From Candidatus Cryptobacteroides excrementipullorum (lineage in GTDB: Bacteria; Bacteroidota; Bacteroidia; Bacteroidales; UBA932): 64,000 nucleotides of DNA. Below the pieces are notes generated by a model. That model ran no database searches. It was not told the DNA's origin and saw nothing but the letters and a program-made list of their open reading frames with translations. The stretch covers positions 48,315-112,314 of the forward strand of contig JADILZ010000040.1 of NCBI GenBank assembly GCA_017695065.1, given 5' to 3'. Position numbers and translations under genes: made by a program. Shown here piece by piece: positions 3,346-25,388 of this stretch; the first letter of the stretch is position 1, and each line of letters starts with the position of its first letter.

Positions 3346-3353
3346 TATCTTTG
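3346..3353 (+). promoter_or_regulatory. -7 box TATCTTTG of the aryl-polyene operon
   Basis: TATCTTTG is an exact TAnnTTTG match. It lies 66 bp before the chosen ATG (3419) of the ammonia-lyase and 66 bp after the gap terminator. It is the only promoter-like element recognised between 3.3 and 25.4 kb, so it probably drives the whole operon. It also argues against the upstream ATG at 3317, which would lie ahead of the transcript. Confidence 0.6.
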
Positions 3354-3418
3354 CACACTGTCCGGTTTATCAGCGGATAATGTTAAGGGTTGTCGGATAC
3401 ATTGACAGGAGGCCAGCA

Positions 3419-4939
3419 ATGATTGTAGGGAATAGAATAGACTTGGATTCTATTGAAAAAATACTATTCGAAAATGAACTGATTGAAGTCTCTGAGGAGG
3501 CGGCGCACACAGTCAGCCGCAGTTTCCGTTTCCTGGAAAAATTCGCCAGGGAGAAAATAATATACGGTATCAATACTGGTTTCGGGCCCATGGCCCAGTA
3601 CAGGGTGGACGACAGCTCCCTGACAGAGCTCCAGTACAACATCATCAGGAGCCATGCCACCGGGGCCGGTGCTCCGCTGCCCTGCATCTACGTAAAGGCA
3701 GCCATGCTGGCAAGGCTCATGACTTTTCTCCAGGGCAAGTCAGGAGTGAGCCCTGAGCTGGTGGATGAAGTGGTGAAGTTCATCAATCTCGGTATTTTCC
3801 CATATATCCCGGAGCATGGGAGTGTCGGGGCCAGCGGAGACCTGGTGCAGCTTGCCCATATCGCCCTTGCCCTGATAGGTGAGGGTGAGGTGTTCTTCAA
3901 AGGGCAGCTTTCGCCTGCCGCCGAAGTCCTGGACAGTCTCGGGGTAAAGCCGTTCACTATACGCATAAGGGAAGGGCTTTCTGTCACCAACGGGACATCG
4001 GTGATGACCGGTATAGGGCTTGTGAACCTCATCTATGCCAGGCGTCTTTTCCGCACTGTGCTCACCGCATCGGTCCTGATAAACGAGGTGGCTTCTTCAT
4101 ACGATGACCTCATGTCCGAGGAACTGAATGCCGCCAAGCTGCACGAGGGGCAGAGGAAGGTGGCGGAGATGATGCGCAGCGATGCCTCTGGAAGCAGGTG
4201 TCTCAGGAAGAGGACTGCGGAGCTTTACAGCGGAAAACATACCGAAAGGCAGTTCGGGCACAAGGTACAGCCGTATTATTCTCTGCGTTGTGTGCCTCAG
4301 GTGCTCGGCCCTGTATATGACGAACTCGTGAATGCCGGCAAGGTCCTCGTGGCAGAGATCAATTCTGCCTGCGACAATCCTATAGTGGATCCTGATACGT
4401 CCAATGTCTATCATGGCGGGAACTTCCACGGTGACTATGTCTCTTTCGAGATGGATAAGCTGAAGATAGCGGTCACCAAGATGACCATGATGTGTGAAAG
4501 ACAGCTCAACTACTTGATGCATGACAAGATAAACGGGATTCTTCCGCCGTTTGTGAACATGGGAGTACTCGGGCTGAACTACGGAATGCAGGCATCCCAG
4601 TTCACAGCCACATCCACCACTGCGGAGTGTCAGACTCTTTCCAACCCGATGTATGTCCACAGCATCCCCAACAACAATGACAACCAGGATATCGTGAGCA
4701 TGGGCACAAATTCCGCCCTTATCGCCGCGAAAGTCATCGATAACGCATTCCAGGTGACAGCGATACATCTGGTTTCCCTGGCTCAGGCCGTGGACTGCCT
4801 GGATATCGCTTCAGGCCTGTCCCCGGTCACGCACAGACTGTACAGCGCTGTCAGGGAAATCGTCCCGGCATTCAGGGATGACAGACCGAGATACAGGGAG
4901 ATAGAGAAAGTGGCGGACTATATCAGAAACTCAAGATAA
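3419..4939 (+). CDS. Aromatic amino acid ammonia-lyase (HAL/TAL family), probable tyrosine ammonia-lyase
   Basis: A 506-residue member of the histidine/phenylalanine/tyrosine ammonia-lyase family, which removes ammonia from an aromatic amino acid to give an arylacrylic acid. The MIO cofactor triad Ala-Ser-Gly is at residues 138-140 in GSVGASGDLVQLAH, and the catalytic Tyr is in YGINTGFG (Tyr49). The start at 3419 follows an AGGAGG-type ribosome site at 3407-3412. The in-frame ATG at 3317 lies upstream of the -7 box. No hut genes are nearby. The next gene is a ketoreductase and the rest is a type II polyketide cluster, so the likely role is making 4-coumarate from tyrosine as the aryl starter unit. 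The selectivity loop (NIIRSHATGAG) looks HAL-like, so histidine cannot be excluded from sequence alone. Confidence 0.85.
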   Translation: MIVGNRIDLDSIEKILFENELIEVSEEAAHTVSRSFRFLEKFAREKIIYGINTGFGPMAQYRVDDSSLTELQYNIIRSHATGAGAPLPCIYVKAAMLARLMTFLQGKSGVSPELVDEVVKFINLGIFPYIPEHGSVGASGDLVQLAHIALALIGEGEVFFKGQLSPAAEVLDSLGVKPFTIRIREGLSVTNGTSVMTGIGLVNLIYARRLFRTVLTASVLINEVASSYDDLMSEELNAAKLHEGQRKVAEMMRSDASGSRCLRKRTAELYSGKHTERQFGHKVQPYYSLRCVPQVLGPVYDELVNAGKVLVAEINSACDNPIVDPDTSNVYHGGNFHGDYVSFEMDKLKIAVTKMTMMCERQLNYLMHDKINGILPPFVNMGVLGLNYGMQASQFTATSTTAECQTLSNPMYVHSIPNNNDNQDIVSMGTNSALIAAKVIDNAFQVTAIHLVSLAQAVDCLDIASGLSPVTHRLYSAVREIVPAFRDDRPRYREIEKVADYIRNSR

Positions 4940-4951
4940 AGCTCAGGGAAA

Positions 4952-5695
4952 GTGGAACAGAGGGAGAAAAAATACGCACTTGTGACAGGCGGAAGCCGTG
5001 GTATAGGCAGGGCTGTCTGCCTGAAGCTTGCCGGTATGGGATACAGTGTCATCGTGAATTACAGAAGCAACGATGATGAGGCTCATGTCACTCTCGGGAT
5101 GATCGAGTCTGCGGGGGGTGAGGGTGAGCTCCTGAAGTTCGACGTGGCTGACAGGCAGGATGTTGAAGAGGCCCTTTCCTCTTGGAAATCCGCGCATGAG
5201 GGGTCTTATATCTCCGTGCTTGTGAACAATGCCGGGTTCCGGGATGACAGCCTTCTGATATGGATGGAGGACAGCAGCTGGGAACAGGTGGTTGACGTGA
5301 CACTGAAGGGTTTCCTGAATGTGACGAGGTTCCTCCTCAAGGACATGCTTGTCGCCAGGTTCGGACGAGTGGTCAACATATCGTCCCTCTCAGGGATAAA
5401 AGGCCTGCCGGGACAGACAAACTATTCCGCAGCAAAAGGCGGTCTTATAGCCGCGACGAAGGCCCTTGCACAGGAGACTGCCAGAAAAAAGGTCACGGTA
5501 AATGCAGTGGCGCCTGGCTTCATATCCACAGACATGACCAGGGACCTGGACGAGAACGAGCTCAGGAAGCTCATCCCGGCAGGCCGTTTCGGGACTCCGG
5601 ATGAAGTCGCGGCTGCGGTAGGGTTCCTTGCCTCGGAAGAGGCGTCATACATTACTGGAACAGTCATATCAGTGAACGGAGGATTATATACTTGA
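4952..5695 (+). CDS. 3-oxoacyl-ACP reductase (FabG-like SDR) of the polyene pathway
   Basis: A 247-residue short-chain dehydrogenase of typical FabG length, expected to reduce beta-ketoacyl-ACP intermediates with NADPH during chain extension. The cofactor motif TGGSRGIGRAV is at the N-terminus, NNAG follows at about residue 90, and the catalytic Ser-Tyr-Lys set is in ISSLSGIKGLPGQTNYSAAKGG (shown here by its parts ISSLSG and YSAAK). The C-terminal ITGTVISVNGG is canonical. The frame begins with GTG at 4952, preceded by CAGGGAA, 12 bp after the lyase stop. No ATG occurs before the nucleotide-binding motif. It is followed 7 bp later by a ketosynthase. Confidence 0.92.
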   Translation: MEQREKKYALVTGGSRGIGRAVCLKLAGMGYSVIVNYRSNDDEAHVTLGMIESAGGEGELLKFDVADRQDVEEALSSWKSAHEGSYISVLVNNAGFRDDSLLIWMEDSSWEQVVDVTLKGFLNVTRFLLKDMLVARFGRVVNISSLSGIKGLPGQTNYSAAKGGLIAATKALAQETARKKVTVNAVAPGFISTDMTRDLDENELRKLIPAGRFGTPDEVAAAVGFLASEEASYITGTVISVNGGLYT

Positions 5696-5702
5696 CGGTA
5701 CT

Positions 5703-6926
5703 ATGAGGAGAGTTGTCATTACCGGCATGGGGATATACTCATGCATCGGCAGGAACAAGGAAGAGGTGACGGAATCGCTTTATGCCGGGAAATCCGGCAT
5801 CGGGACTGATCCCGTCCGCAAGGAAATGGGCTTTGCATCATCTCTGACCGGGATTATTGCGCGTCCTGACCTCAAGGGCATTCTTGACAGGAAGAAGAGG
5901 AACAGCCTTCCGGAGCAGGGCGAATACGCCTACATGGCTACGCTGGAGGCATTTGCACAGGCGGGGATTGACGGGGACTTCCTGCAGGGCCACGAGGTGG
6001 GTATCCTCTATGGCAACGACTGCAGCGCGGCCCCCATTGTCCGCTCCATTGATACCATAAGGGCTGAAAAGGACACCGCTATGGTAGGTTCCGGAGCCAT
6101 ATTCCAGTCAATGACATCCACCGTGTCCATGAACCTTTCTGTGATATTCCGCCTGACTGGCATAAACTTCACTGTGGCCGGGGCATGCGCAAGCGGTTCC
6201 CATGCCATCGGCATCGCCTATCTCCTCATACGCACAGGACTCCAGGACTGCATCCTGTGCGGAGGGGCGCAGGAGGTGAACCCGTATTCTGTGGGGAGTT
6301 TCGACGGGCTGGGAGCATTTTCCAAGCGGGAGGATGCACCCGAGAAGGCATCCAGGCCTTTCGACAGGAACAGGGACGGGCTTGTCCCGAGCGGCGGAGG
6401 TGCGAGCCTGGTGCTCGAGAGCTACGAGTCCGCTGTAAGACGCGGGGCGCCGATTCTGGCAGAGGTCATCGGATACGGCTTCTCATCCAACGGTGACCAT
6501 ATATCGGTTCCGAATGTGGGCGGTCCGAAACGCTCGATCGAGATGGCCGTGAAGGATGCGGGGATAGACCTCGGAAGCATAGCTTATGTCAATGCCCATG
6601 CGACTTCCACCCCTGTGGGAGACTTCAACGAGGCTAAGGCCATTGCCGAGGTTTTCCGCGGACATCACCCTCTGGTTGCATCCACCAAGTCAATGACAGG
6701 CCACGAGATGTGGATGGCCGGGGCAAGCGAGGTGATATATTCCATGCTGATGATGCAGAACGGCTTTGTTGCACCGAACATCAACTTCTCGGAGCCCGAT
6801 GAGGCTTCCGCCCTGCTGGACATACCTGCGGAGCGTGCCGATATCGGGTTCGATACTTTCCTATCCAATTCATTCGGGTTCGGAGGGACCAATTCCACCC
6901 TAATAGTCAGAAAATTCAAAAAATAA
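5703..6926 (+). CDS. Beta-ketoacyl-ACP synthase (FabF-type), KS 1
   Basis: A 407-residue KAS II-like condensing enzyme, complete from RRVVITGMGIYSCIG to SNSFGFGGTNSTLIVRKF. The triad is intact: Cys162 in VAGACASGS, His299 in NAHATSTPVGD and His334 in MTGHEMW, with Lys329 before it. It should catalyse decarboxylative Claisen condensation of malonyl-ACP with the growing polyene. It lies 7 bp after the ketoreductase and 11 bp before an ACP gene, consistent with a discrete type II system. It is one of three ketosynthases with a full triad in the operon. Which one starts, extends or ends chain growth cannot be told from sequence. Confidence 0.93.
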   Translation: MRRVVITGMGIYSCIGRNKEEVTESLYAGKSGIGTDPVRKEMGFASSLTGIIARPDLKGILDRKKRNSLPEQGEYAYMATLEAFAQAGIDGDFLQGHEVGILYGNDCSAAPIVRSIDTIRAEKDTAMVGSGAIFQSMTSTVSMNLSVIFRLTGINFTVAGACASGSHAIGIAYLLIRTGLQDCILCGGAQEVNPYSVGSFDGLGAFSKREDAPEKASRPFDRNRDGLVPSGGGASLVLESYESAVRRGAPILAEVIGYGFSSNGDHISVPNVGGPKRSIEMAVKDAGIDLGSIAYVNAHATSTPVGDFNEAKAIAEVFRGHHPLVASTKSMTGHEMWMAGASEVIYSMLMMQNGFVAPNINFSEPDEASALLDIPAERADIGFDTFLSNSFGFGGTNSTLIVRKFKK

Positions 6927-8073: not shown

Positions 8074-9124
8074 CAACAGCAAGACAGTCAGTGCCGAACA
8101 GGCTCAGCGCAATGCCCATCTGATCGCATCCGGAGCCATTGTGTTCCAGGTCGCCAGGGTGATGGTCAGGACTGGGATTTTCGCCTGCATTTCATCCGAA
8201 GGCCGTACCATGGAGGAAATAGCCGCCAGTACCGGACTCCCGCTGTACGGGGTGAAGGTGCTTCTTGAGGCGTCTCTGACTGCCGGTACTGTCGAAAAGA
8301 AGGACGGCCTGTGGAGCCTTTCCAAGACAGGATGGTTCCTGCTCAATGACCCGATGGTGAAGGTGGACATGGATTTCAACCATGATGTCAACTACAGGGG
8401 GTTCTTCTATCTCGAGGAATCTGTGAGGAACGGGAAGCCGGAGGGGCTGAAGACCCTCGGGGAGTGGCCGACAATATACGAGGGGCTCTCGAGCCTTGAG
8501 CCCCAGGTGCGGAAGAGCTGGTTCGCTTTCGACCATTTCTACTCAGACTCTTCATTCGGGAAGGCTCTGGAGATCGTGTTCGCTACACATCCGGCAAGGA
8601 TACTCGATATAGGCGGCAATACCGGGAAATGGGCCATGCAGTGCACTTCATATGACCCGGCGGTGGAACTGACCATAATGGACCTGCCGCAGCAGATAGG
8701 GCTGATGAAAGAGAACACCGCATCATTCCGGCATAGGGACAGGATATCCGGTTATCCCGCTGACATCCTTGACGTAAACACTGTTTTCCCGACCGGTTAC
8801 GATGTCGTGTGGATGAGCCAGTTCCTGGACTGCTTCTCTTCCGCTCAGGCCGCAGGCATACTGGAGCGTGCCAGGAAGGCCTTGGCTGACGGGGGCAGGA
8901 TATTCATCATGGAGACTCTGTGGGACCGGCAGAAATATGACACTGCAGCCTTTGATTTAACGCAGATAAGCCTCTATTTCACTGTGATGGCAAACGGGAA
9001 CAGCAAAATGTTCTCTACGGATGACCTTGTATCCTGTATCCGTGAGGCCGGTCTTTCCGTCGCAGCCATACATGATGACATAGGATACGGACATTCAATA
9101 CTGGAGTGTGTGCCTGAAAAATGA
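8057..9124 (+). CDS. SAM-dependent O-methyltransferase with N-terminal winged helix
   Basis: A 355-residue two-domain methyltransferase like the acetylserotonin/hydroxyneurosporene O-methyltransferase group. The N-terminal half (residues about 10-100) is a dimerisation winged helix with RTMEEIAASTGLPLYGVKVL. The C-terminal Rossmann domain has the SAM motif ILDIGGNTGKWA, followed by LTIMDLPQQI. The start at 8057 overlaps the acyltransferase by 17 bp; a longer frame from 7976 lies entirely inside the upstream gene and is unlikely. It ends in an ATGA overlap with the dehydratase-like gene. It probably methylates the phenolic head group of the aryl polyene, an inference from context. Confidence 0.88.
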   Translation: MPRRIDNSKTVSAEQAQRNAHLIASGAIVFQVARVMVRTGIFACISSEGRTMEEIAASTGLPLYGVKVLLEASLTAGTVEKKDGLWSLSKTGWFLLNDPMVKVDMDFNHDVNYRGFFYLEESVRNGKPEGLKTLGEWPTIYEGLSSLEPQVRKSWFAFDHFYSDSSFGKALEIVFATHPARILDIGGNTGKWAMQCTSYDPAVELTIMDLPQQIGLMKENTASFRHRDRISGYPADILDVNTVFPTGYDVVWMSQFLDCFSSAQAAGILERARKALADGGRIFIMETLWDRQKYDTAAFDLTQISLYFTVMANGNSKMFSTDDLVSCIREAGLSVAAIHDDIGYGHSILECVPEK

Positions 9125-9576
9125 TGGAATATACAGAACATATTGAAGGACAGGAACTTCTGGAGCTTGTCCCTCAAAGGCCTCCGATGCTTATGGTGGA
9201 CCAGTTCCTCGGGATATCGGACGGGGTGTCGTGGTCCGGACTTACTGTGAGGCCGGATAATGTCTTCTGCACCGGCGGGGTGTTTGCCGCGCCGGGGATA
9301 GTCGAGCATATGGCACAGTCTGCCGCTGCCAGGGCCGGCTATTCATTCAGGAAAGACGGATGTCCGGTACCGCTGGGTTTTGTCGCCTCCATAGAGAAAA
9401 TGCATTTTTCAGGCTCACTGCCGCGTCCGGGAGACAGCCTGAGGACTTCCGTGGAGGTGGTTGCGGACATATTCGGCATGAGCCTGGTGCATGCTGTGTG
9501 CTGGAGAGGGGAGGAGGTCCTGGCCGAGGGTGATATGAAGATTTATCTTGATACGGAAAGGGATGAGAAAGCGTAA
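9121..9576 (+). CDS. FabZ/ApeP-like hotdog dehydratase
   Basis: A 151-residue hotdog-fold protein resembling beta-hydroxyacyl-ACP dehydratases, which form the trans double bonds of a polyene. The N-terminal LVPQRPPMLMVD corresponds to the FabZ opening LxPHRxPFLLVD, with Gln in place of His. The central helix IVEHMAQSAAARAGY keeps the catalytic Glu and MAQ segment. The GHFPG loop of FabZ is missing: its place is taken by FCTGGVFAAPG, which has no His. It overlaps the methyltransferase by ATGA. The aryl-polyene dehydratase-like families are similarly divergent, so this may be a clade feature, but whether it is catalytic alone is unclear. Confidence 0.8.
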   Translation: MMEYTEHIEGQELLELVPQRPPMLMVDQFLGISDGVSWSGLTVRPDNVFCTGGVFAAPGIVEHMAQSAAARAGYSFRKDGCPVPLGFVASIEKMHFSGSLPRPGDSLRTSVEVVADIFGMSLVHAVCWRGEEVLAEGDMKIYLDTERDEKA

Positions 9577-9583
9577 GTCATTA

Positions 9584-10009
9584 ATGGACAAGGCCGCGCT
9601 TGTCAGCAGGACAAACGTCAGGATACGTTTCAGCGAGACGGATGCCATGGGTATCGTCTGGCATGGCAACTACGCCAGGTTTTTCGAGGATGGCAGGGAG
9701 GCTTTCGGGCACGAGTTCGGTCTGGACTACATGAGTGTCCGCAACGAAGGATATACCATCCCTGTTGTGGAGATGACCTGCAGTTACAGGAAATCGCTGA
9801 CTTTCGGGGAGGAGATAACGGTGGTGACCGGGCTTGTGCCGTGCGAAGCCGCCAAGATACAGTTTGAATATGCCATTTACAGGGCTTCAGACAACGAGCT
9901 GATGGCTTCGGGGAGCACGGTGCAGGTCTTTCTTGACCTGGAAGGGCAGCTCCAGCTTGTCTGTCCCGGGTTTTATCAGCAATGGAAACGGAAATGGAAC
10001 ATCATATGA
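9584..10009 (+). CDS. 4-hydroxybenzoyl-CoA thioesterase-like (YbgC/FadM type) hotdog protein
   Basis: A protein of about 141 residues with the 4HBT thioesterase signature: RIRFSETDAMGIVWHGNYARFFEDGREAF, seen here as SETDAMG and HGNYARFFE. The Asp in the TDAMG segment is the usual catalytic acid. It should hydrolyse acyl-thioesters, either to release the polyene or to clear stalled chains from ACP. The start at 9584 gives an N-terminus MDKAALVSRTNVRI of normal length. An alternative ATG at 9563 would overlap the preceding gene by 14 bp. It ends in ATGA shared with the next ketosynthase at 10006. Confidence 0.87.
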   Translation: MDKAALVSRTNVRIRFSETDAMGIVWHGNYARFFEDGREAFGHEFGLDYMSVRNEGYTIPVVEMTCSYRKSLTFGEEITVVTGLVPCEAAKIQFEYAIYRASDNELMASGSTVQVFLDLEGQLQLVCPGFYQQWKRKWNII

Positions 10010-11433
10010 ACGATGTGTACATAGGTGCATCTTCACTCATAACAGCCTTGGGGCGCGGGGTGAAGGTAAATGCGGATGCGGTGGAGAACTGCCTCTCGGG
10101 GGTGACCCTGCACGAGTCCGCGGATTTTTCTTCCGGGCCGCTGTATGCCGCATCCATACCGGAGAGTGTTTACAGGGAAGCGGTTTCAGAGTACGGGGAG
10201 CTTCCACGTGCGGAGCTGCTTCTTTCAGCTGTTGTCGGAGACGTACTGAAGGAGTCCGGGACGGACCTTTCCGACCCTGAGACAATGCTTGTAATATCCA
10301 CTACCAAAGGGGATGTGGAGCTGCTCGACCCTTCTGACAGCATGCCTGACGGGCGTACCTATCTGTGGAAGACAGGGGAGAATGTGGCCAGGCGCTTCGG
10401 GGCAGGGGACAGGTTCATCGTCATCTCCAATGCCTGTATATCAGGGGTCTCTGCCATGATTGTGGCCATGAGACTTGTCTCTTCCGGGAGGTGTCGAAGG
10501 GCTGTCGTTGCCGGCTGCGACGTGCTTTCACGCTTCGTGGTGAGCGGTTTCTCCTCGTTCAAGTCGTTGAGCTCCGGCCGGTGCCGTCCTTATGACGCAA
10601 GCCGCGACGGGCTGAATCTCGGTGAGGCCGCAGGGGCTGTTGTGCTCGGCTGCGGGCCTGAAGACGGGCAGGTGGTGATTTCCGGAGGTTCCATAAGCGA
10701 TGATGCCAACCATATTTCCGGACCGTCCCGTACCGGGGACGGGCTTTTCTTCGCCATGCGGGATGCCATGCGGGAGGCCGGGGTGACCCCTGACGAAATC
10801 AGCTTTATGGAGCTCCACGGTACGGCTACGGTGTATAACGACGAGATGGAATCCAAGGCGATAGCCCTGGCCGGAATGTCCCCGGTACCTGTCCAGAGCC
10901 TGAAACCTTACTTCGGCCATACTCTGGGAGCTTCGGGTGTGATAGAGACCATAATGAGCATAGAGCAGATGAAGCGCGGGGTGGTATGGGGCACACCCGG
11001 TTTCGTGACCATGGGAGTGCCCGAGCCGGTGAATGTCTCTGCGGAGCACAGGAAATGCCGCATGAGGCACTGTCTTAAGGCAGCTTCCGGATTCGGAGGG
11101 TGCAATGCTGCCATAGTCCTGAGCCTTCCGGAGTACGTGACGGACAGGGAAGACCGCTGGAGCCTGTCCCGTAACAGCGCCACGGAGGCTGAAGTGCTGC
11201 GTACTGTAGAAATCAGTGACGGAAGGATTCTCAGGAACGGACACGAGGTCTTCAGTTCCAAGGAACAGGATTTCGGAGATTTCGCCAGGGAAGCCTACAG
11301 GGCTTCAGGGCGCACCTATATGAAGTTCTTCAAGATGGACAACCTCTGCAAGCTCGGCTATCTTGCCGCTGAAGAGCTGCTTGACGGGATCGGTTTCGAG
11401 CCGCTTGAGACTGCTCTTGTCCTGTCGAACTAG
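10006..11433 (+). CDS. Beta-ketoacyl-ACP synthase (KS 2), C-terminal extension cut by an in-frame TAG
   Basis: The translated part is 475 residues. Residues 1-370 form a complete ketosynthase: Cys144 in SNACISGVS, His271 in MELHGTATVYND, His305 in YFGHTLGAS, ending near ASGFGGCNAAIVLS. From about residue 380 a second segment begins, with YMKFFKMDNLCKLGYLAAEEL and ETALVLSN, resembling the start of another thiolase-fold half. TAG at 11431-11433 stops this segment in its middle. The same frame then stays open for 107 more codons. The start at 10006 overlaps the thioesterase stop by ATGA; the ATG at 9982 lies inside that gene. The first ketosynthase domain should be made normally. Whether the truncated protein works depends on the lost tail. 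Confidence 0.85.
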   Translation: MNDVYIGASSLITALGRGVKVNADAVENCLSGVTLHESADFSSGPLYAASIPESVYREAVSEYGELPRAELLLSAVVGDVLKESGTDLSDPETMLVISTTKGDVELLDPSDSMPDGRTYLWKTGENVARRFGAGDRFIVISNACISGVSAMIVAMRLVSSGRCRRAVVAGCDVLSRFVVSGFSSFKSLSSGRCRPYDASRDGLNLGEAAGAVVLGCGPEDGQVVISGGSISDDANHISGPSRTGDGLFFAMRDAMREAGVTPDEISFMELHGTATVYNDEMESKAIALAGMSPVPVQSLKPYFGHTLGASGVIETIMSIEQMKRGVVWGTPGFVTMGVPEPVNVSAEHRKCRMRHCLKAASGFGGCNAAIVLSLPEYVTDREDRWSLSRNSATEAEVLRTVEISDGRILRNGHEVFSSKEQDFGDFAREAYRASGRTYMKFFKMDNLCKLGYLAAEELLDGIGFEPLETALVLSN

Positions 11434-11757
11434 AGCTCGTCCCTGGACTCCGACCTGAGGCATCTGGAGGAGGTAGCCCTTCACGGCGAGCAGGGTGCGA
11501 GCCCTGCGGTGTTCGTATATACCTTGCCGAATGTGGTTTCCGGAGAGATTTGCATCCGTCACAGGATAAAGGGCGAGAACACGTTTTTCATCACCAGGGA
11601 ATACGCTCCCGGGAAACTGCGCGGATATGCCTCTATGATAATGTCCGGGTGCGGCTACCGCTACTGTATCGCAGGCTGGTGCGAGATGCTCAAGGGCAGG
11701 TACATGGCCAGGTTCGAGCTGCTCGGCCCTGGGACCATTTCAGGGAATGAAGTTTAA
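11434..11757 (+). pseudogene. In-frame continuation of KS 2 after the TAG (ketosynthase-like C-terminal segment)
   Basis: These 107 codons continue the KS 2 frame directly after TAG and end at TAA 11755-11757. The reading is conserved-looking: SSSLDSDLRHLEE, then ASPAVFVYTLPNVVSGEICI and RHRIKGENTFFI. These read as one block with the upstream ALVLSN, as in the non-catalytic ketosynthase-like halves of polyene clusters. The position expected for a nucleophile Cys is in VYTLPNVV, which has none. No good start codon or ribosome site lies between TAG and the first conserved block, so independent translation is unlikely. The ACP gene follows 17 bp later. One base change at the TAG would restore a 583-residue protein. 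Confidence 0.7.
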
Positions 11758-11774
11758 AACAATACAGGAACATA

Positions 11775-12032
11775 ATGGAAAATATCAACGAAACTTTTAA
11801 AAGACAGCTTGTCGAGGCCCTTAACCTTGAAGATGTCAGGCCGGAAGACATAGATGACAATGCTCCTCTGTTCGGCGACGCAGGACTGGGACTCGATTCC
11901 ATAGATGCTCTCGAGATCATCCTCATTCTCGAGAGGAACTACGGCGTGAAGGTGGAGAACCCTAGGGAAGGAAAGGAGATATTCTATTCCGTATCCACCA
12001 TAGCGGACTATATCAGGAAGCACAGGAAATGA
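11775..12032 (+). CDS. Acyl carrier protein 2
   Basis: An 85-residue ACP with the phosphopantetheine serine at position 42 in GLGLDSIDALE and a typical following helix ILERNYGVKVEN. It differs clearly from ACP 1: an LDSID motif in place of MDSLD, and a longer loop before helix IV (REGKEIFYSVSTIADYI). It sits between the TAG-interrupted KS 2 and KS 3, sharing ATGA with the latter, so it is probably the carrier used by that ketosynthase pair. Confidence 0.92.
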   Translation: MENINETFKRQLVEALNLEDVRPEDIDDNAPLFGDAGLGLDSIDALEIILILERNYGVKVENPREGKEIFYSVSTIADYIRKHRK

Positions 12033-13219: not shown

Positions 13220-13226
13220 CAGATAT

Positions 13227-14063: not shown

Positions 14064-14080
14064 GGCGGGGAGGTAGGGTC

Positions 14081-14797: not shown

Positions 14798-15441
14798 ACG
14801 GTAAAAAAATAATATCTTTGCTGGCGGCTGTTTTCCTGCCGGCCATGCTGGCGCCATGCGCCTTTTCACAGGAGCTTGTGGAGTTGGACGATGTCCGGGG
14901 TTTTGAAAAGAGGCTTGAGGAGACAGCGGCTTCGATACGGACTATAGACAGCCGTTTCATGCAGCGCAAATACATGGATGTTCTTCAGAAGGACATGGTG
15001 TCGGAGGGGACTTTCAGGTATATGGCGCCGGACAAGGTGAGGATGGAATACGAGACCCCGGTACAGTATGTCATGGTGATGAACGGTGATTCCATGAAGA
15101 CGGTCTCCGGGGGAAAAGAGAATGTGATGAGGGACACCGGAAGTCCCATGTTCTCCCAGCTGCGCAGTCTGATGACAGCATGCATGACCGGGGCCCTCGG
15201 GGCACTGAATGATAATTTCAAGGTCAGGTTTTTTTCCGGGGACGGCGAATATGTACTGAGACTTGAGCCTCTGGACGAGTTCATGAAAGACTATATCAGC
15301 ATGATAGAGATGCATATAGACATGAAGGAGATGAAGCTCGTCAGGCTCAGGATGAACGAAGGCGGGACAGACTATACCGAGTACCTGTTCAGCGACATAA
15401 AGTACAACACTCTTGAGGATGAGGGCATTTTTGAAATATAG
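14794..15441 (+). CDS. LolA-like outer membrane lipoprotein carrier
   Basis: A 215-residue secreted protein with a signal peptide ending near CAFSQ. The mature part has LolA family features: a first strand block with SIRTIDSRFMQRKYMDVL, then GTFRYMAPDKVRMEYETP and the repeated antiparallel beta pattern. LolA proteins chaperone lipid-modified cargo through the periplasm. Homologues occur in aryl-polyene and flexirubin clusters, where the cargo is thought to be the polyene lipid, so it is probably the periplasmic shuttle here. It starts in ATGA overlap with the deacetylase. The next gene, a lipoprotein, begins inside its last 23 bases. Confidence 0.82.
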   Translation: MNGKKIISLLAAVFLPAMLAPCAFSQELVELDDVRGFEKRLEETAASIRTIDSRFMQRKYMDVLQKDMVSEGTFRYMAPDKVRMEYETPVQYVMVMNGDSMKTVSGGKENVMRDTGSPMFSQLRSLMTACMTGALGALNDNFKVRFFSGDGEYVLRLEPLDEFMKDYISMIEMHIDMKEMKLVRLRMNEGGTDYTEYLFSDIKYNTLEDEGIFEI

Positions 15442-15934
15442 GCTTCCTGTGGCGCTTGCCCTTGTACTTGCGGCTTCCTGCTCTCCCAAGGTCATGCCGG
15501 AGCCGGCCGGGCTGCCGTCATCGTGGATAAGCGGCGTGGAAGGCACCTGCGGTGCCTACGGCATGAGAATCACATTCAGGTCACTGTCAGAGTCATGCAT
15601 GCTTGCCGTGCGCAGGACAGGCGACGGAGTCAGGGCCCAGGCCGTGACCTGGTTCGGGATGAGCCTTTTCGATGTGCATGTGGGGAAGGACGGTTTGTCC
15701 GTGAACTCATGCGCTGCATTCCTCGACAGAAGGCCTGTGCTGTCCGTCATCGGGAATACCCTCAGGTGTGTATTCATGGACGGGGGACGGACTGCGGTGA
15801 AGGGTGGCACTACCGTTACCAGGAGAGCAGGGGTGGTCTGCACCCGAGTATCGCTCCCGGACGGCAGGCGGGTCCTGTCTGTGAAGCACAGGCTTTCAGG
15901 TATGGGGATGGAATTGGAAGGACTGGAGGATTGA
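15419..15934 (+). CDS. Small lipoprotein of the polyene cluster (possible LolB-like or DUF3261-like partner)
   Basis: A 171-residue lipoprotein. MRAFLKYRLPVALALVLAASC has a lipobox ending at Cys21, so the mature protein is lipid-anchored. The rest is beta-rich without a recognised motif. It overlaps the LolA-like gene by 23 bp; the ATG at 15419 is preferred over a TTG at 15413. Aryl-polyene operons of proteobacteria also pair a LolA-like carrier with a small lipoprotein. A receiving role at the outer membrane, similar to LolB, is plausible but only inferred from position and size. Confidence 0.7.
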   Translation: MRAFLKYRLPVALALVLAASCSPKVMPEPAGLPSSWISGVEGTCGAYGMRITFRSLSESCMLAVRRTGDGVRAQAVTWFGMSLFDVHVGKDGLSVNSCAAFLDRRPVLSVIGNTLRCVFMDGGRTAVKGGTTVTRRAGVVCTRVSLPDGRRVLSVKHRLSGMGMELEGLED

Positions 15935-15944
15935 GACAGCATAT

Positions 15945-17132
15945 ATGGACGGACATAAGGAAAATGAAGGAATGAGGCATGATGTGGTGGCTGTGGTCCC
16001 GACTTACAACAACGGGAGGACCCTGCGCGATGTCGTTCTCGGGATAAGGGAATATCTCCGGGATGTCATTGTCGTGGACGACGGCTCCACTGATGATACT
16101 CCTTCTGTCCTGTCGTCGCTCGGGGATGCTGTCCGGGTGATCAGGCATCCGTCCAACAGAGGAAAGGGAAATGCCCTCAAGACAGGGCTCTCCGAGGCGC
16201 GCAGGTCCGGATACAGGTATGCCATCACGATTGATTCCGACGGCCAGCATTTCCCGTCGGACATCCCTTCTTTCCTTTCAGAGATAGAAAAGACCCCGGG
16301 CGCAGTGCTTGTCGGGGCGAGGAACATATCCGCGGAGAACATGCCGGGAAAGAACAGCTTCGCCAACAGGTTCTCCAACTTCTGGTACAGGCTCGAGACC
16401 GGGAACCGCCTTTCGGACACACAGTCAGGGTTCCGGCTATATCCGGTACAGGATACGGATTATTCAAAATGGTGGTACACAGGTAAATATGAGTTTGAAC
16501 TCGAAGCTATTGTGTTCGCTTCATGGAGAGGCGTGACAGTCAGGAATATCCCGGTGAAAGTGTATTACCAGCCTCCCGGTGAAAGAGTGTCGCATTTCAG
16601 GCCCTTCAGGGATTTTTTCAGGATAAGCGTCCTCAACACCGTGCTTGTGCTTGTATGTGCGCTATGGATATGGCCGAGGAATTTCCTGCGTAACTTCAGC
16701 CGGAAGAACATCGGAGCCTTCTATCGCCGGCACATAGCCAATGCTACAGAGTCCAACTTCAGGATTGCCGCTGCTGTCGCCCTGGGCGTGTTCATGGGCA
16801 TAGTGCCTATCTGGGGATACCAGATGATAACAGCTGTCGCCATAGCCCATTTCCTGAGGCTTAACAAGGTGATTACTGTCGTGGCATCCAATATAAGCAT
16901 CCCACCGATGATACCGCTGATCCTCTACGGTAGCTATTACACAGGCTGTAAGGTACTGGGACGCCCTTGTTCACTGAGCATGGGCGACATTTCGCTCGAG
17001 AACACTTTCTCAGTCCTTGAACAGTATGTGACAGGAAGTTTCATATTCGCTGCGGCATGTTCGCTCCTGGCCGGTCTGCTGACCTGGGCCCTGCTGTGCC
17101 TGTTCAGAAGGAGGAGGTCAACATGGGCATGA
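15945..17132 (+). CDS. GT2 glycosyltransferase fused to DUF2062
   Basis: A 395-residue fusion. Residues about 10-230 form a family 2 glycosyltransferase, with AVVPTYNNGRTL, the Asp motif VIVVDDGSTDDT and the metal site ITIDSDGQHFP. From about residue 235 a membrane part follows: one helix (VLNTVLVLVCALWIW), then FRIAAAVALGVFMGIVPIWGYQ, the DUF2062 signature, and a terminal helix. Such fusions are found in aryl-polyene clusters and probably add a sugar, or build a carrier-linked head group, on the inner membrane. An alternative start at 15972 would shorten it by nine residues. The next gene begins 10 bp before its end. Confidence 0.85.
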   Translation: MDGHKENEGMRHDVVAVVPTYNNGRTLRDVVLGIREYLRDVIVVDDGSTDDTPSVLSSLGDAVRVIRHPSNRGKGNALKTGLSEARRSGYRYAITIDSDGQHFPSDIPSFLSEIEKTPGAVLVGARNISAENMPGKNSFANRFSNFWYRLETGNRLSDTQSGFRLYPVQDTDYSKWWYTGKYEFELEAIVFASWRGVTVRNIPVKVYYQPPGERVSHFRPFRDFFRISVLNTVLVLVCALWIWPRNFLRNFSRKNIGAFYRRHIANATESNFRIAAAVALGVFMGIVPIWGYQMITAVAIAHFLRLNKVITVVASNISIPPMIPLILYGSYYTGCKVLGRPCSLSMGDISLENTFSVLEQYVTGSFIFAAACSLLAGLLTWALLCLFRRRRSTWA

Positions 17133-20954: not shown

Positions 20955-22439
20955 ATGGAATATGATGCAGTCATAATAGGCAGCGGACTCGGCGGACTCG
21001 AGTGCGGGGCCATCCTGAGCAAGGAGGGCTGGAACGTGTGTGTCCTGGAGAAGAACCGTCTTTTCGGAGGGTGTCTCCAGACGTTCACCAGGTACGGATA
21101 CAGCCTTGACACCGGGCTTCACTATCTCGGAAGCATGGAGGACGGCCAGATCCTGAACCAGTGTTTCAGGTATCTCGGCATAATGGACAGGTTAAGGCTC
21201 AGGAAGCTGGATGAGGACCGTTTTGACAGGATATGGCTCGGAGGAAAGCTTTATGACTATGCCTGCGGACCGGAGCATTTCACGGAGGTGATGTCCGGCT
21301 ATTTCCCGCAGGAGAGCGACGGACTGCGGGAATACATAGGGAAGGTGTGCGAAGTCGGACGGCTGGTGTCCGTCGAAAATCTCGGCAAGGGATTCGTCTC
21401 CTCTCCGGTCGGGCTGAAATACATGTACGAATCGGCTTCTGATGTCATCTGTTCCTCTGTCAGGGACAGCACCCTCCGCAACATCCTTTCAGGGAATGCC
21501 CTCCTTTACGGAGGAGAACGCGACAAGTCCACTTTCTATGAGCACGGGATGATACTGTACTCCTACCTTGAGGGAGCTTACAGATGTGTGGACGGATGCA
21601 TGCAGATCGCCGACCTTCTCGTGGAGGAGATACGCCGCAACGGCGGTACTGTCCTCAACATGTCCTGTGTGGACAGGATAGCGGTCAGTGACGGCAGGGT
21701 CACCGGGGTGGAGCTTTCTGACGGCACCTTCATCGGGGCCGCCAATGTCATATCAGACATACATCCTGCGGTCACTCTCTCTATCCTGGACCGGACTCCG
21801 CTTGTAAAGCCGGCATACAGGATGAGGGTGGAGTCGCTCGACAACACATACGGTGTATTCACCATGTACCTGATGATGAAGCCCGGCACTTCACCTTATG
21901 CCAACTACAACATCTACCTCCACCGCGGGACTTCCGTGTGGTACGAGAGGGGACAGGACAGGTTTTCATCCTGCATGCTTTCCATGCAGGCCTCATCGGA
22001 AGATCCCGGGCATTCCTGCGTATTGTCAGTGATGGCGCCGATGTGCATGGACCAGCTGACTGCCTGGAAGGACACTCTCCCCGGGCACAGGGGCGAGGAC
22101 TACACATCCTTCAAACAGATGAAATGCGGGGAACTGCTCGGCTTCATCAGCGAATGCGGGTTGGGGATACCGGGTGAAGTGAACCGCACCTTTGCCACTA
22201 CACCGTTGAGCTACAGGGATTTCACCGGCACTGTGGACGGGTCTGCATACGGGATAATAAAGGACTGGCACAACCCCTTGCTGAGTATGATCTCTCCCAG
22301 GACCAAGCTTGGGAACCTGTTCTTTACCGGACAGAATGTAAATGTCCACGGTGTGCTCGGTGTCACACTGACATCCGTGATGACATGTTCAGAGCTTCTC
22401 GGACAGGAATATTTGACAAAAAAGATAGCCTATGTTTAA
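20955..22439 (+). CDS. FAD-dependent phytoene desaturase/retinol saturase-like oxidoreductase
   Basis: A 494-residue flavoprotein. The N-terminal dinucleotide motif is AVIIGSGLGGLECGAIL followed by CVLEKN, with GGCLQTF next, and a C-terminal FAD segment GNLFFTGQNVNVHGVLG. The overall plan is that of the CrtI/retinol saturase group that acts on long conjugated chains. In the pigment operon it may introduce or reduce a double bond, or oxidise the head group. It starts one base after the fusion gene stop. Its last eight bases overlap the C45 gene. The reaction cannot be decided from sequence. Confidence 0.85.
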   Translation: MEYDAVIIGSGLGGLECGAILSKEGWNVCVLEKNRLFGGCLQTFTRYGYSLDTGLHYLGSMEDGQILNQCFRYLGIMDRLRLRKLDEDRFDRIWLGGKLYDYACGPEHFTEVMSGYFPQESDGLREYIGKVCEVGRLVSVENLGKGFVSSPVGLKYMYESASDVICSSVRDSTLRNILSGNALLYGGERDKSTFYEHGMILYSYLEGAYRCVDGCMQIADLLVEEIRRNGGTVLNMSCVDRIAVSDGRVTGVELSDGTFIGAANVISDIHPAVTLSILDRTPLVKPAYRMRVESLDNTYGVFTMYLMMKPGTSPYANYNIYLHRGTSVWYERGQDRFSSCMLSMQASSEDPGHSCVLSVMAPMCMDQLTAWKDTLPGHRGEDYTSFKQMKCGELLGFISECGLGIPGEVNRTFATTPLSYRDFTGTVDGSAYGIIKDWHNPLLSMISPRTKLGNLFFTGQNVNVHGVLGVTLTSVMTCSELLGQEYLTKKIAYV

Positions 22440-24093
22440 GAAAATCCTGAAATATACCGCACTTGCAGCCGTGCTCATTGCATCAGGCATATTGCTGTGG
22501 GCCTGGTGTCTGTACGCATCCGCCGACATGAAGATGCCGGAGCATTCATTCGACGATGACGGCAGCCTGTATTTCTCGGACAGCCTCAGGACCTATGACG
22601 GGAACTGGCTCAGGCTCGGGAAGGACGGCATCTGGGAGATGAAGGTCTCAGGAAACAGCTTCGAGAGGGGCTATGCCATCGGACAGATGTCTTCCGACCT
22701 GCTGTATTACCAGGAGAATGTGTTCGTGGAGCAGATACGCCGGCTCATCCCGTCGGACTCATATCTGAAATTCCTGAGGTTCTTCATCATAATGTTCAAC
22801 AGGAATCTCGGCGAGAATGTGGATGAGGAATACCGCAACGAGATATACGGCATATCCGCTTCCTGCACCCATGAGTTCGATGCCATAGGGACTCCGTACG
22901 AAAGGCAGATGCAGTACCATTCCGCACATGACATAGGTCATGCGATGCAGGATTTCATGATGGTCGGGTGCACATCTTTCGCGGCCTGGGACGGGATGAC
23001 TGCGGACGGAGGCCTGCTTGTGGGGCGCAACTTCGACTTCTACATGGGGGACGATTTCTCCCGCAACAAGCTCGTGTCGTTCTTCTGCCCGGATGACGGG
23101 TACAGGTTCGCCTCTGTCAGCTGGCCCGGGATGATCGGGGTGCTTTCCGGAATGAACGAGAAGGGGCTCACTGTCACCATCAATGCGGCCAGGTCCGACA
23201 TCCCCACATCTTCAGCCACGCCCATATCCATCCTTGCCAGGGAGATTCTGCAGTACGCCTCCGATATAGGCCAGGCATACAGGATAGCCTCCAGGCACAG
23301 GACTTTTGTCTCAGAATCCATCCTGATAGGATCCGCGGCAGACCACATGGCCGCCGTCATAGAAATATCCCCTGATAAAATGTCGCTTTTCGCTCCCGAA
23401 GGGGACAAGGTGATATGTACCAATCATTTCCAGTCCAATGAATTTATGTCCGACAGGCGCAATTCAGAGAATATACGCACATCCGACAGTCCTTACAGGT
23501 ACAAGAGGACCGAAGAGCTTGCAGCCGGGCTGGCTCCGCTCGACCGCGCTGACGCGGCGGCAATCCTGCGTGACAGGTACGGGCTTGGCGGATGCGAGCT
23601 CGGACTGACCAACGAGATGGCTGTCAACCAGCTTATAGCCCACCACAGTGTCATTTTCATGCCTGACTCGCTCATGATGTGGGTAAGCACAGCCCCGTGG
23701 CAGTGCGGTAAATATGTGGCATACGACCTGAGGCGGATATTCTCGGACAGCACGGTCCCTTCAGGGGAGATATGCATTCCGCAGGACAGTATCGCACATG
23801 ACCCTTTCCTTGACGGGAAAGGATATTCCGACGCTTTGGAATACAGACGCATCCACAAGGTGCTGAGAGCTTGTGCAGATGCCGGGACACCCGGGCCCGA
23901 CGGGATTGTGGACAGCCTTGTGGCCGTCAATCCTCATTTCTACGGGACCTATGACATTGCCGGGGACTATTATTTTTGCACCGGTGAACATGAGAAGGCC
24001 GTGGCATGCTGGGAAAAGGCCCTGGCACTGCCTGTGCCGAAGACAGGAATAAGGGATTCGATAGAAAAGAAGATAAAGAAGTGCAAGATATGA
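22432..24093 (+). CDS. C45 family Ntn-hydrolase (acyl-CoA:6-APA acyltransferase-like), membrane-anchored
   Basis: A 553-residue protein with one N-terminal membrane helix (residues 8-27). The core is a C45 (choloylglycine/penicillin acylase-like) Ntn fold. Cys180 in VGCTSFAAWDG is the expected nucleophile exposed by self-cleavage, and GGLLVGRNFDFY follows at the usual distance. Later motifs include NEKGLTVTINA and VICTNHF. C45 enzymes cleave or form amide bonds to acyl chains. On the periplasmic side, in this operon, it could transfer or remove the polyene acyl group from an amine. A carboxy-terminal stretch (about 490-550) looks like a TPR-type helical tail (AGDYYFCTGEHEKAVACWEKA region). 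It overlaps the FAD gene and shares ATGA with the ligase. Confidence 0.82.
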   Translation: MFKKILKYTALAAVLIASGILLWAWCLYASADMKMPEHSFDDDGSLYFSDSLRTYDGNWLRLGKDGIWEMKVSGNSFERGYAIGQMSSDLLYYQENVFVEQIRRLIPSDSYLKFLRFFIIMFNRNLGENVDEEYRNEIYGISASCTHEFDAIGTPYERQMQYHSAHDIGHAMQDFMMVGCTSFAAWDGMTADGGLLVGRNFDFYMGDDFSRNKLVSFFCPDDGYRFASVSWPGMIGVLSGMNEKGLTVTINAARSDIPTSSATPISILAREILQYASDIGQAYRIASRHRTFVSESILIGSAADHMAAVIEISPDKMSLFAPEGDKVICTNHFQSNEFMSDRRNSENIRTSDSPYRYKRTEELAAGLAPLDRADAAAILRDRYGLGGCELGLTNEMAVNQLIAHHSVIFMPDSLMMWVSTAPWQCGKYVAYDLRRIFSDSTVPSGEICIPQDSIAHDPFLDGKGYSDALEYRRIHKVLRACADAGTPGPDGIVDSLVAVNPHFYGTYDIAGDYYFCTGEHEKAVACWEKALALPVPKTGIRDSIEKKIKKCKI

Positions 24094-25388
24094 AAAGGGA
24101 ACCTGACATACAATTCCGTTCTCCTGAGGAAATCAGGAGATACCAGGAAAAGAGGCTGGCGGAGGCGCTCGAGTACCTCGCCGCCAACTCGGAATTCTAC
24201 AGGAGGATGTTCCGGGAGTATTCGATCGACATAAGGAAGGTGAGGAAAATCGAGGACCTTGTGACCATCCCCCTGACCACCAAGACCGACCTCCAGCTCC
24301 ACAACAGGGAGTTCCGCTGTGTGCCCGACTCGGAGGTTATCGATTACGTAACCACATCGGGCACACTGGGAGATCCGGTGACATTCGTCCTTACAGACAA
24401 TGACCTGGACAGGCTTGCCTATAACGAATACCTTTCTTTCACGACCGCAGGGTGCACACGCGATGACATCCTCCAGCTCATGACCACCATCGACCGCAGG
24501 TTCATGGCAGGCCTTGCCTACTACATGGGAGCGAGGGAGCTCGGAATGGGTGTGGTGCGCGTCGGAAACGGCATTCCGGAACTCCAGTGGGACACCATAG
24601 GGCGGATACACCCGACATGCGGAATGGTTGTCCCTTCTTTCATCATGAAGCTCATTGACTTCGCCGAGAAGAACGGCATAGACTACAAGGGGTCGTCCAT
24701 GCGCAAATGCATCTGTATAGGAGAAGCCCTCCGGCAGCCGGACACATTCTGTTTCAACACTCTCGGCAGGAAGATAAACGAGAGATGGGGCAACCTCCAG
24801 CTTTATTCCACATACGCCTCCACCGAGATGCAGGCATCCTTCACGGAATGCGGGCATTTCTGCGGCGGCCATCTCCAGCCCGAACTCATAATAGTGGAGT
24901 TCCTCGATGAAAACGGGAACCCTGTAAAGGAGGGGGAACCCGGGGAGGTCACTATCACGACACTCGGGGTGACAGGCATGCCTCTGCTGAGGTTCAGGAC
25001 AGGTGACATCTGCCATCACTACACCGGGCACTGTTCTTGCGGGAGAAACACTGTAAGGCTGAGTTCTGTCCTGGGGAGAAAGGGACAGATGATCAAATTC
25101 AAGGGCACCACCCTGTATCCGCCTGCTCTTTATGACATACTGGACAATATACCCAAGGTGGTCAACTACATCGTTGAGGTCTATACCAACAGCCTCGGGA
25201 CTGACGAGATCACCATTCGGGTAGGCTCCGAGGACCACAGCGATGTATTTGTCAAGGAAATAAAGGACATGTTCCGGGCAAAGGTGAGGGTGGCCCCCTC
25301 CATCACGTTCGAGTCTCCTGAGTACATCGCCAAGCTGCAGTTTCCTCAGATGAGCCGCAAGGCGGTGAAATTCATAGACTTGAGATGA
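24090..25388 (+). CDS. Phenylacetate-CoA ligase (PaaK)-like adenylate-forming enzyme
   Basis: A 432-residue ANL-superfamily ligase of PaaK size. The phosphate loop is VTTSGTLGDPVTFVLT, the aromatic motif is YASTEMQASFTEC, the A8-type motif is MPLLRFRTGDIC, and a Cys-rich HCSCGR follows, as in PaaK. It should activate an aryl carboxylic acid as the AMP ester and pass it to CoA or directly to an ACP. With the ammonia-lyase at the other end of the operon, 4-coumarate is the natural substrate. It starts in ATGA overlap with the C45 gene and is the last gene of the operon. A repeat stub follows about 90 bp after its stop. Confidence 0.87.
   Translation: MKREPDIQFRSPEEIRRYQEKRLAEALEYLAANSEFYRRMFREYSIDIRKVRKIEDLVTIPLTTKTDLQLHNREFRCVPDSEVIDYVTTSGTLGDPVTFVLTDNDLDRLAYNEYLSFTTAGCTRDDILQLMTTIDRRFMAGLAYYMGARELGMGVVRVGNGIPELQWDTIGRIHPTCGMVVPSFIMKLIDFAEKNGIDYKGSSMRKCICIGEALRQPDTFCFNTLGRKINERWGNLQLYSTYASTEMQASFTECGHFCGGHLQPELIIVEFLDENGNPVKEGEPGEVTITTLGVTGMPLLRFRTGDICHHYTGHCSCGRNTVRLSSVLGRKGQMIKFKGTTLYPPALYDILDNIPKVVNYIVEVYTNSLGTDEITIRVGSEDHSDVFVKEIKDMFRAKVRVAPSITFESPEYIAKLQFPQMSRKAVKFIDLR

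What the first reader, a model, noticed from the sequence alone, without database searches (positions are those of the whole stretch)
3346..25388. Complete ~22-kb aryl-polyene-type operon with an unusual tailoring set
Twenty genes run in one direction from a single TATCTTTG box, nearly all overlapping or within 20 bp. The core (ammonia-lyase, ligase, KR, dehydratase-like, two ACPs, KS/CLF, MMPL, LolA-like) matches aryl-polyene pathways. The extra set is less usual: a CE4 deacetylase, a C45 Ntn-hydrolase, an FAD desaturase-like enzyme, two methyltransferase modules and two acyltransferase modules. DarA/DarB were not found, so the product is probably an aryl polyene lipid and not a full flexirubin. 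The head group or lipid anchor could be new.
Basis: partly seen in the sequence, partly recalled or inferred. Interest (0 to 1): 0.75.

Follow-up and report, generated by a model that had tools for sequence, protein, structure and literature searches.

The report
Flexirubin-type pigment operon missing half-dehydratase
This 22-kb stretch is a Bacteroidales version of the known flexirubin pigment gene cluster, predicted to make a yellow membrane polyene without the resorcinol half; its real oddity is that this genome and four sister species lack the gene for one half of the cluster's two-part dehydratase, a step that would have to be done by another enzyme, likely the ordinary fatty-acid one.

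Summary
The observation largely holds. Twenty co-directional genes (3419-25388) form one tight operon, and DarA/DarB are absent genome-wide. 'Unusual tailoring set' does not hold: CE4, GT2, MMPL fusion, FAD enzyme, C45 and ligase lie in this same order in 39 of 89 loci read, among them Chitinophaga pinensis, Flavobacterium, Bacteroides and Phocaeicola vulgatus, and four NCBIfam Flx equivalogs exceed their cut-offs. DarB was also not found in 15 of 15 nearer relatives searched (13 of 14 others have it). So: a DAR-free flexirubin-type aryl-polyene cluster; its product is predicted, not shown.

(1) The ApeI-like dehydratase subunit with the catalytic His (FlxS-type), present between CE4 and GT2 in 54 of 55 comparable loci, is gone, while its Glu-bearing, His-less partner stays. 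Four sister species share this operon and loss; their genomes hold only a FabZ-size homologue. Housekeeping FabZ likely supplies the activity. (2) The second ketosynthase has an in-frame amber stop private to this assembly; an intact 99%-identical copy exists.

A new variant of a known kind, moderately interesting.

The parts
3346..3353 (+). TATCTTTG, possible Bacteroidota -7 box
   Evidence: 4 copies in window vs 1.36 expected, so weak
3419..4939 (+). FlxA tyrosine ammonia-lyase
   Evidence: NCBIfam FlxA 838.5 bits, cut-off 700
4952..5695 (+). FlxB ketoreductase (SDR)
   Evidence: NCBIfam FlxB 392.1, cut-off 340
5703..6926 (+). KS1, FabB/F-like ketosynthase, Cys-His-His kept
   Evidence: Pfam; residues
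6938..7183 (+). ACP1
   Evidence: PF00550
7180..8073 (+). Lipid A acyltransferase-like protein
   Evidence: PF03279
8057..9124 (+). FlxJ-family methyltransferase
   Evidence: NCBIfam FlxJ 542.8, just under cut-off 560; 65-69% to sister species
9121..9576 (+). FabZ-like dehydratase subunit without the catalytic His, with the Glu (ApeP-like half)
   Evidence: no Pfam match
9584..10009 (+). 4HBT thioesterase
   Evidence: PF13279
9982..11757 (+). KS2, ketosynthase with C-terminal domain, interrupted by TAG
11431..11433 (+). In-frame amber codon private to this assembly
   Evidence: 0 of 54 aligned homologous loci have a stop there
11775..12032 (+). ACP2
   Evidence: PF00550
12029..13219 (+). KS3, elongating ketosynthase, Cys-His-His kept
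   Evidence: Pfam; residues
13227..14063 (+). KS-like chain-length-factor protein, no Cys at the nucleophile place (by eye)
   Evidence: PF13723; sequence
14081..14797 (+). CE4 deacetylase, N-terminal membrane anchor (by eye)
   Evidence: PF01522; Asp51, Asp52, His102, His106 in 59 of 59 matched loci
14794..15441 (+). LolA2_flexi periplasmic carrier
   Evidence: NCBIfam 173.3, cut-off 125
15419..15934 (+). Putative lipoprotein (lipobox-like N-terminus, by eye)
   Evidence: no Pfam match
15935..15944 (.). Place where the FlxS-type (ApeI-like, His-bearing) dehydratase gene lies in relatives; absent here
15945..17132 (+). GT2-DUF2062 glycosyltransferase
   Evidence: PF00535 + PF09835
17123..20953 (+). 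MMPL exporter fused to PlsC-type acyltransferase and methyltransferase
   Evidence: PF03176, PF01553, PF13649
20955..22439 (+). FAD enzyme of the CrtD/CrtI type
   Evidence: TIGR02733/02734 below cut-off
22432..24093 (+). C45 Ntn acyltransferase/hydrolase, N-terminal membrane anchor (by eye), nucleophile Cys180
   Evidence: NCBIfam 231.3, cut-off 85; Cys in 60 of 60 matched loci
24090..25388 (+). FlxY 4-coumarate ligase
   Evidence: NCBIfam FlxY 702.7, cut-off 520

Best explanation
This is a 20-gene flexirubin-type (flx) aryl-polyene operon with no dialkylresorcinol genes in the genome, predicted to make a tyrosine-derived polyene acid that is likely fixed to an outer-membrane lipid, and in this genome and four sister species it lacks the His-bearing half of its dehydratase, whose work housekeeping FabZ would likely do. 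Inferred steps: FlxA makes 4-coumarate and FlxY activates it; KS1-KS3 with the chain-length-factor protein, FlxB and dehydration build the polyene; FlxJ methylates it. The envelope genes would then anchor and export it: GT2 would make a lipid-linked amino sugar, CE4 would deacetylate it in the periplasm, C45 would move or trim an acyl group there, and MMPL, LolA and the lipoprotein would carry the product out. Shown here: gene content, order, orthology, absence of DarA/DarB and of FlxS from the assemblies, conserved catalytic residues, and the amber codon. Not shown: any product, any enzyme activity, and which enzyme replaces FlxS.
For: Four flexirubin equivalogs over cut-off. Same gene order in G298 and G056 and nearly so in G055, and in sister species G640, G603, G530 and G546; nine genes from ACP2 to the ligase in this order in 39 of 89 loci, named Bacteroides, Phocaeicola, Flavobacterium and Chitinophaga included. 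The polyene pathway and the TAL and ligase activities are published for C. pinensis (PMC3992019). DarA/DarB absent genome-wide; DarB at E <= 1e-20 in 0 of 15 nearer relatives and 13 of 14 others. FlxS lies between CE4 and GT2 in 54 of 55 loci that have KS3, CE4 and GT2 on one strand, out of 89 examined. A FlxS profile finds one FabZ-size ORF (146-152 aa) in each of the five genomes and nothing else at E <= 0.1. Split site: the FabZ His column is a gap in 28 of 28 partner subunits and His in 2 of 2 FlxS; the Glu column is Glu in 28 of 28 and Gln in 2 of 2. FlxS and the partner match chains A and B of one solved entry, 6QSR, and a paper states that ApeI/ApeP is a heterodimer with a single active site (PMC8041823 passages). 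The five species form one clade, 100/99.
Against: No chemistry or expression data. FlxJ scores just under its cut-off (542.8 of 560). The partner subunit matches FabZ chains better than 6QSR chain B (8.3e-9 against 7.8e-4), and FlxS is below the Pfam ApeI cut-off though over the FabA one. The amber in KS2 could mean that the operon is failing in this strain, although a 583-aa, 99%-identical copy exists elsewhere. FlxS is not rare to lose inside this genus: of 13 same-genus loci with KS3, CE4 and GT2, 10 lack it, 6 of them with the rest of the reductive genes. FabZ as the replacement rests on its being the only homologue found and on four reduced same-genus clusters lying next to fab genes, not on any interaction test. 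The role of C45, CE4 and GT2 in lipid attachment is inferred; six of the 16 same-genus loci read lack both C45 and the FAD enzyme.
Confidence: 0.75

Rival explanations
1. The operon is decaying: loss of FlxS and then the amber codon in KS2 mean that no polyene is made in this lineage any more.
For: Missing dehydratase subunit and a private in-frame TAG.
Against: Four sister species keep the same 20 genes at full length with KS2 intact at 587-603 aa; a 99%-identical intact KS2 with 64 member sequences exists; the catalytic residues checked in KS1-3, CE4 and C45 are kept.
Confidence: 0.15
2. The orphan subunit has become a self-sufficient dehydratase, perhaps using the His at position 124 that is fixed only in the FlxS-less clade.
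For: His124 in 5 of 5 FlxS-less subunits and 0 of 23 others; positions 57 and 89, near-invariant in the others (21 of 23 and 22 of 23), are changed in all five.
Against: The five are one clade, and ten columns past the start codon set them apart, as shared ancestry alone would; no structure places His124 at the active site.
Confidence: 0.15
3. A new head group or lipid anchor made by an unusual tailoring set.
For: CE4, C45 and FAD genes are present.
Against: The same set in the same order is standard in flx clusters of many genera.
Confidence: 0.1

Closest known systems
flx polyene cluster of Chitinophaga pinensis (flxA-flxY)
   Same: TE, KS2, ACP2, KS3, CLF, CE4, LolA, FlxS, GT2, MMPL, FAD, C45 and ligase in this order in L169, FlxS excepted here; a FlxJ relative at 46%; the paper's TAL FlxA and ligase FlxY
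   Different: No DarA/DarB in this genome (L169's genome has DarB); FlxS-type dehydratase missing; FlxJ lies between KS2 and ACP2 there but before the dehydratase here; KS2 and its second domain are separate ORFs of 382 and 203 aa there, one gene split by an amber here
flx clusters of Bacteroidaceae (P. vulgatus ATCC 8482 L114, B. acidifaciens L118)
   Same: Same genes in the same order as far as the 10-kb flanks reach, no DarB match; a B. xylanisolvens arylpolyene cluster was likened to the C. pinensis flexirubin cluster in print (PMC12940132 passages)
   Different: They keep FlxS
Proteobacterial aryl polyene (ape) clusters of E. coli, Xenorhabdus, Acinetobacter
   Same: Two ACPs, KS/CLF, KR, LolA/LolB-like/RND export, split dehydratase ApeI/ApeP (PMC8253772, PMC8041823 passages)
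   Different: 4-hydroxybenzoate starter there, tyrosine ammonia-lyase here; extra CE4, C45 and FAD genes here; no ape cluster was compared by sequence apart from the 6QSR chains

Membership tests
flx aryl-polyene cluster | FlxA tyrosine ammonia-lyase equivalog | tested here: met
   838.5 of 700 bits
flx aryl-polyene cluster | FlxB reductase and FlxY ligase equivalogs | tested here: met
   392.1 of 340; 702.7 of 520
flx aryl-polyene cluster | LolA2_flexi carrier | tested here: met
   173.3 of 125
flx aryl-polyene cluster | FlxJ methyltransferase (often present, not taken as defining) | tested here: inconclusive
   542.8, cut-off 560; 46-59% to matches in 19 of 89 loci
flx aryl-polyene cluster | Gene order from ACP2 to the ligase as in C. 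pinensis and P. vulgatus | tested here: met
   39 of 39 loci that match all nine genes, of 89
flx aryl-polyene cluster | Second, His-bearing dehydratase FlxS (usual, 54 of 55 loci; not taken as defining) | tested here: not met
   hence filed as a variant
full flexirubin pathway | DarA and DarB in the genome | tested here: not met
   so not filed as a flexirubin producer
full flexirubin pathway | Polyene-resorcinol ester in cells | not testable with these tools
   needs mass spectrometry
ApeI/ApeP split dehydratase | Two subunits, one active site (His from one, Glu from the other) | tested here: not met
   only the Glu subunit is present

The most novel reading that the evidence does not exclude
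In this clade of Bacteroidales the pigment's dehydratase is a hybrid enzyme: the pathway's orphan Glu-bearing subunit pairs with the housekeeping FabZ, which lends the His. Related same-genus clusters go further, dropping ketoreductase and both dehydratase halves and sitting beside fabH-fabK-fabF-fabZ. Aryl-polyene synthesis is thus being merged step by step into membrane fatty-acid synthesis.
Probability: 0.3. Interest if true: 0.55.

Novelty: new variant of a known kind. Interest (0 to 1): 0.4.

Why it matters
[quoted passage not shown] DarB-free clusters that keep these genes suggest the envelope genes act on the polyene itself and not only on resorcinol esters. The five species that lost one half of a split dehydratase give a natural test of whether polyene and fatty-acid enzymes can exchange subunits.

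Tried and rejected
Unusual tailoring set: rejected, because the set and its order are conserved across genera.

TAG as a recoded codon: rejected, because no stop occurs at that place in 54 aligned loci, the four sister species have one open KS2 and an intact 99%-identical protein exists. I did not search for a suppressor tRNA outside the window.

FlxS hidden elsewhere or fused: a single FlxS protein finds in this genome only a partial FabZ match and one at E 0.5; a profile finds only FabZ-size ORFs. A fusion to GT2 does exist in G707 but not here. Hidden DarA/DarB: none.

Literature: a search for Cryptobacteroides with arylpolyene gave two papers; the passages read in one did not bear on this. 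A search for ApeI, ApeP, dehydratase and aryl polyene gave four papers; by title none concerns Bacteroidales. That the ApeI-less state is not in print rests on these two searches only. That 6QSR is the Xenorhabdus ApeI:ApeP complex is recalled; the tool shows only its molecule names. The name FlxS follows the paper's statement that FlxF and FlxS are the dehydratases, together with gene position; its tables were not seen.

Errors of mine: the query named FlxJ_MT was translated one base out of frame, so its numbers there mean nothing; one search repeats it in frame. In one search the KS2 match of three of the 39 loci (L154, L168, L183) falls on KS3, so KS2 is left out of that count. The script stopped half-way on a missing file. 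The tree's label left G039, G485 and G705 unlabelled because their loci lack CE4 or the ketosynthases.
Full report
What was checked. The window lies at G000:C7:48315-112314 in a 2.76-Mb, 97.8%-complete genome. Two same-genus genomes have contigs of the same length as records titled 'uncultured Bacteroidales bacterium' and 'Bacteroidales bacterium' (G716:C5 = 129,524 and G659:C49 = 137,849), and their ligases fall together with those of L125 and L130 at zero branch length, so the host is an uncultured Bacteroidales. Its habitat is not told; 'gut' is inferred from relatives. Twenty genes run from flxA (likely start 3419) to the ligase (end 25388), every junction between -28 and +17 bases (six starts and flxA's re-chosen by hand).

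What it is. NCBIfam equivalogs for FlxA (838.5, cut-off 700), FlxB (392.1, 340), LolA2_flexi (173.3, 125) and FlxY (702.7, 520) are passed; FlxJ is just under (542.8, 560). The C. pinensis flexirubin paper (text parts 1-2 of 5 read) describes flxA-flxY with a lyase, ketosynthases, dehydratases, a deacetylase, an acyltransferase, LolA, a glycosyltransferase and an exporter, and measures the lyase and ligase activities. 39 of the 89 match all nine of ACP2, KS3, CLF, CE4, GT2, MMPL fusion, FAD enzyme, C45 and ligase, and in all 39 the nine lie in the window's order on one strand. Many of the rest are cut by contig ends or by the 10-kb flank; others have real rearrangements or lack genes (for example L158, L117, L119). 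P. vulgatus ATCC 8482, B. acidifaciens and C. pinensis are among the 39. FlxJ is less constant: 19 of 89 loci, absent from the Flavobacterium loci, moved in C. pinensis.

No resorcinol half. DarB and DarA were taken from the G266 cluster. In 16 genomes, strong DarB matches occur in 8 and DarA matches in 7; this genome has neither. Of 30 further genomes asked (of the 80 loci), 29 were held, and DarB at E <= 1e-20 is in 13: none of 15 nearer relatives (titled Bacteroides, Phocaeicola, Parabacteroides, Alistipes, Rikenellaceae, Salinivirgaceae or unplaced; the grouping by title is mine) and 13 of the 14 others, the exception being L172. DarA was not searched in these 29. Two Bacteroidales-titled genomes, L142 and L193, do have DarB, so the rule is not for the whole order. 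G298 has a DarB relative without a DarA match.

The missing half-dehydratase. In relatives a 120-126-aa protein, nearly always with HFPxxPxxPG, lies just before GT2. It is there in 54 of the 55 loci (of 89) that have KS3, CE4 and GT2 on one strand; L138 is the exception, and L135 departs from the motif. In the window the lipoprotein ends at 15934 and GT2 starts at 15945. A single FlxS protein finds only a partial FabZ match in this genome, besides one at E 0.5; a FlxS profile finds one FabZ-size ORF in each of G000, G640, G603, G530 and G546 and nothing else at E <= 0.1 (G000's is FabZ by its sequence, the other four by size and score). The retained partner (9121-9576) is FabZ-like, but the His column of FabZ is a gap in 28 of 28 such subunits while the Glu column is Glu in all 28; the two FlxS aligned have His and Gln there (22 of the 23 comparison subunits come from loci with FlxS in view, L146 does not). 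The FlxS profile's best PDB match is chain A of 6QSR (2.9e-8); the partner profile also matches chain B of that entry (7.8e-4), though FabZ chains score better (8.3e-9). By Pfam, FlxS passes the FabA cut-off (29.3, 23) and is under the ApeI one (20.7, 28.5). A paper states that ApeI/ApeP is a heterodimeric dehydratase with a single active site (PMC8041823, passages only). So half of an enzyme is gone.

It is not a one-off. Sister species G640, G603, G530 and G546 (GT2 73-75%, ligase 84-85%; completeness 98, 99, 89 and 90%) have the same 20 genes in the same order, full-length KS2 (587-603 aa), and no FlxS. With the window they form one clade, 100/99, in a ligase tree of 50 rows; the FlxS-less label, put on 12 rows, needs 4 changes there. 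Of the 16 same-genus loci read, 13 have KS3, CE4 and GT2: 10 (the window not counted) lack FlxS; G739 and G716 keep it and G707 has it fused to GT2. Six of the ten (G013, G741, G725, G686, G649, G506) also lack FlxA, KR, KS1, the partner subunit, the thioesterase and the FAD enzyme in the stretches read. Four of these six lie beside four ORFs that look like fabH, fabK, fabF and fabZ; NCBIfam was run on G506 alone, where FabZ, FabF and FabH pass their cut-offs and FabK is just under. This favours the view that fatty-acid enzymes can serve such clusters, but it is circumstantial. The window's clade is the only one met here that keeps the Glu subunit while the CE4-GT2 interval, in view, lacks FlxS. 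Its subunit differs from the others at ten columns past the start codon, among them positions 57 (Glu in 21 of 23 others, Ala in all five) and 89 (Gly in 22 of 23, Ala in all five), and has a His at 124 (5 of 5 against 0 of 23); shared ancestry alone could give this.

The amber codon. KS2 is interrupted by an in-frame TAG at 11431-11433. None of 54 aligned homologous loci has a stop there. The protein search (8000 best candidates scored, 120 listed) gives a 583-aa copy, 99% identical over 98% of the query, with 64 member sequences on 16 contigs. The stop is therefore a strain variant or an assembly error.

How it likely works. Activities of FlxA and FlxY are by homology to tested enzymes; elongation follows published ape and flx schemes (PMC8253772 passages and section 6; PMC8358021 passages). 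GT2 scores far below the cut-off of a polyprenyl-phosphate N-acetylgalactosamine synthase family (83.8 of 370), CE4 and C45 have N-terminal membrane anchors by eye (sequences), and C45 keeps its nucleophile Cys in 60 of 60 matched loci. From this I infer periplasmic work on an amino-sugar lipid; it is untested. In E. coli most core ape deletions abolish pigment (PMC8253772 section 6; the phenotypes of apeI and apeP are not named in the text I saw), so a lost dehydratase half should matter unless replaced.

Prevalence. C45 of this type (E below 1e-120) is in 24 of 296 phylum genomes, this one included; 33 of 296 have any match at 1e-3. In the genus, GT2 at E <= 1e-30 is in 127 of 400 genomes, this one included; in 20 of these the match runs through the DUF2062 part as well. 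FlxA over cut-off is in 8 of 61 genomes, this one included.

Verdict. An ordinary flx cluster in kind, a new variant in detail.

Noticed in passing
L247 (G506) 3123-6771 (fab genes) and 9208-19901 (flx genes, going on into L248); also G686, G649, G725: Reduced flx clusters without lyase, ketoreductase or dehydratase genes lie next to fabH-fabK-fabF-fabZ.
   Followed up: partly
L117, L119, L121 near 8600-15900: Three MAG loci (two titled Salinivirgaceae, one Bacteroidetes) carry LolA-lipoprotein-GT2-MMPL fusion with no polyene synthase genes matched in the stretch held.
   Followed up: partly
G485 (L256) 8187-16267 and G705 (L258, from 13649, on into L259): A four-gene block of GT2, MMPL fusion, C45 and ligase without ketosynthases nearby; in G485 a glutamate synthase gene follows.
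   Followed up: partly
L035 17238-18605 (G055): A B12-binding radical SAM protein stands where FlxJ methyltransferase lies in the window.
   Followed up: no
L254 15775-17268 (G707): FlxS-type dehydratase fused to the N-terminus of GT2.
   Followed up: partly
P0002: A metagenomic KS2 whose first part is nearly identical to the window's and whose second part is not (by eye): recombinant or chimeric contig.
   Followed up: no
G298:C2:983121-984245: A DarB relative (47%) in a genome with a full flx cluster but no DarA match.
   Followed up: no
G000:C41:21401-22774 (L197): A second aromatic amino acid lyase in the same genome, 654.8 bits to the Pfam lyase family but below the FlxA cut-off (350.3 of 700), probably histidine ammonia-lyase.
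   Followed up: no
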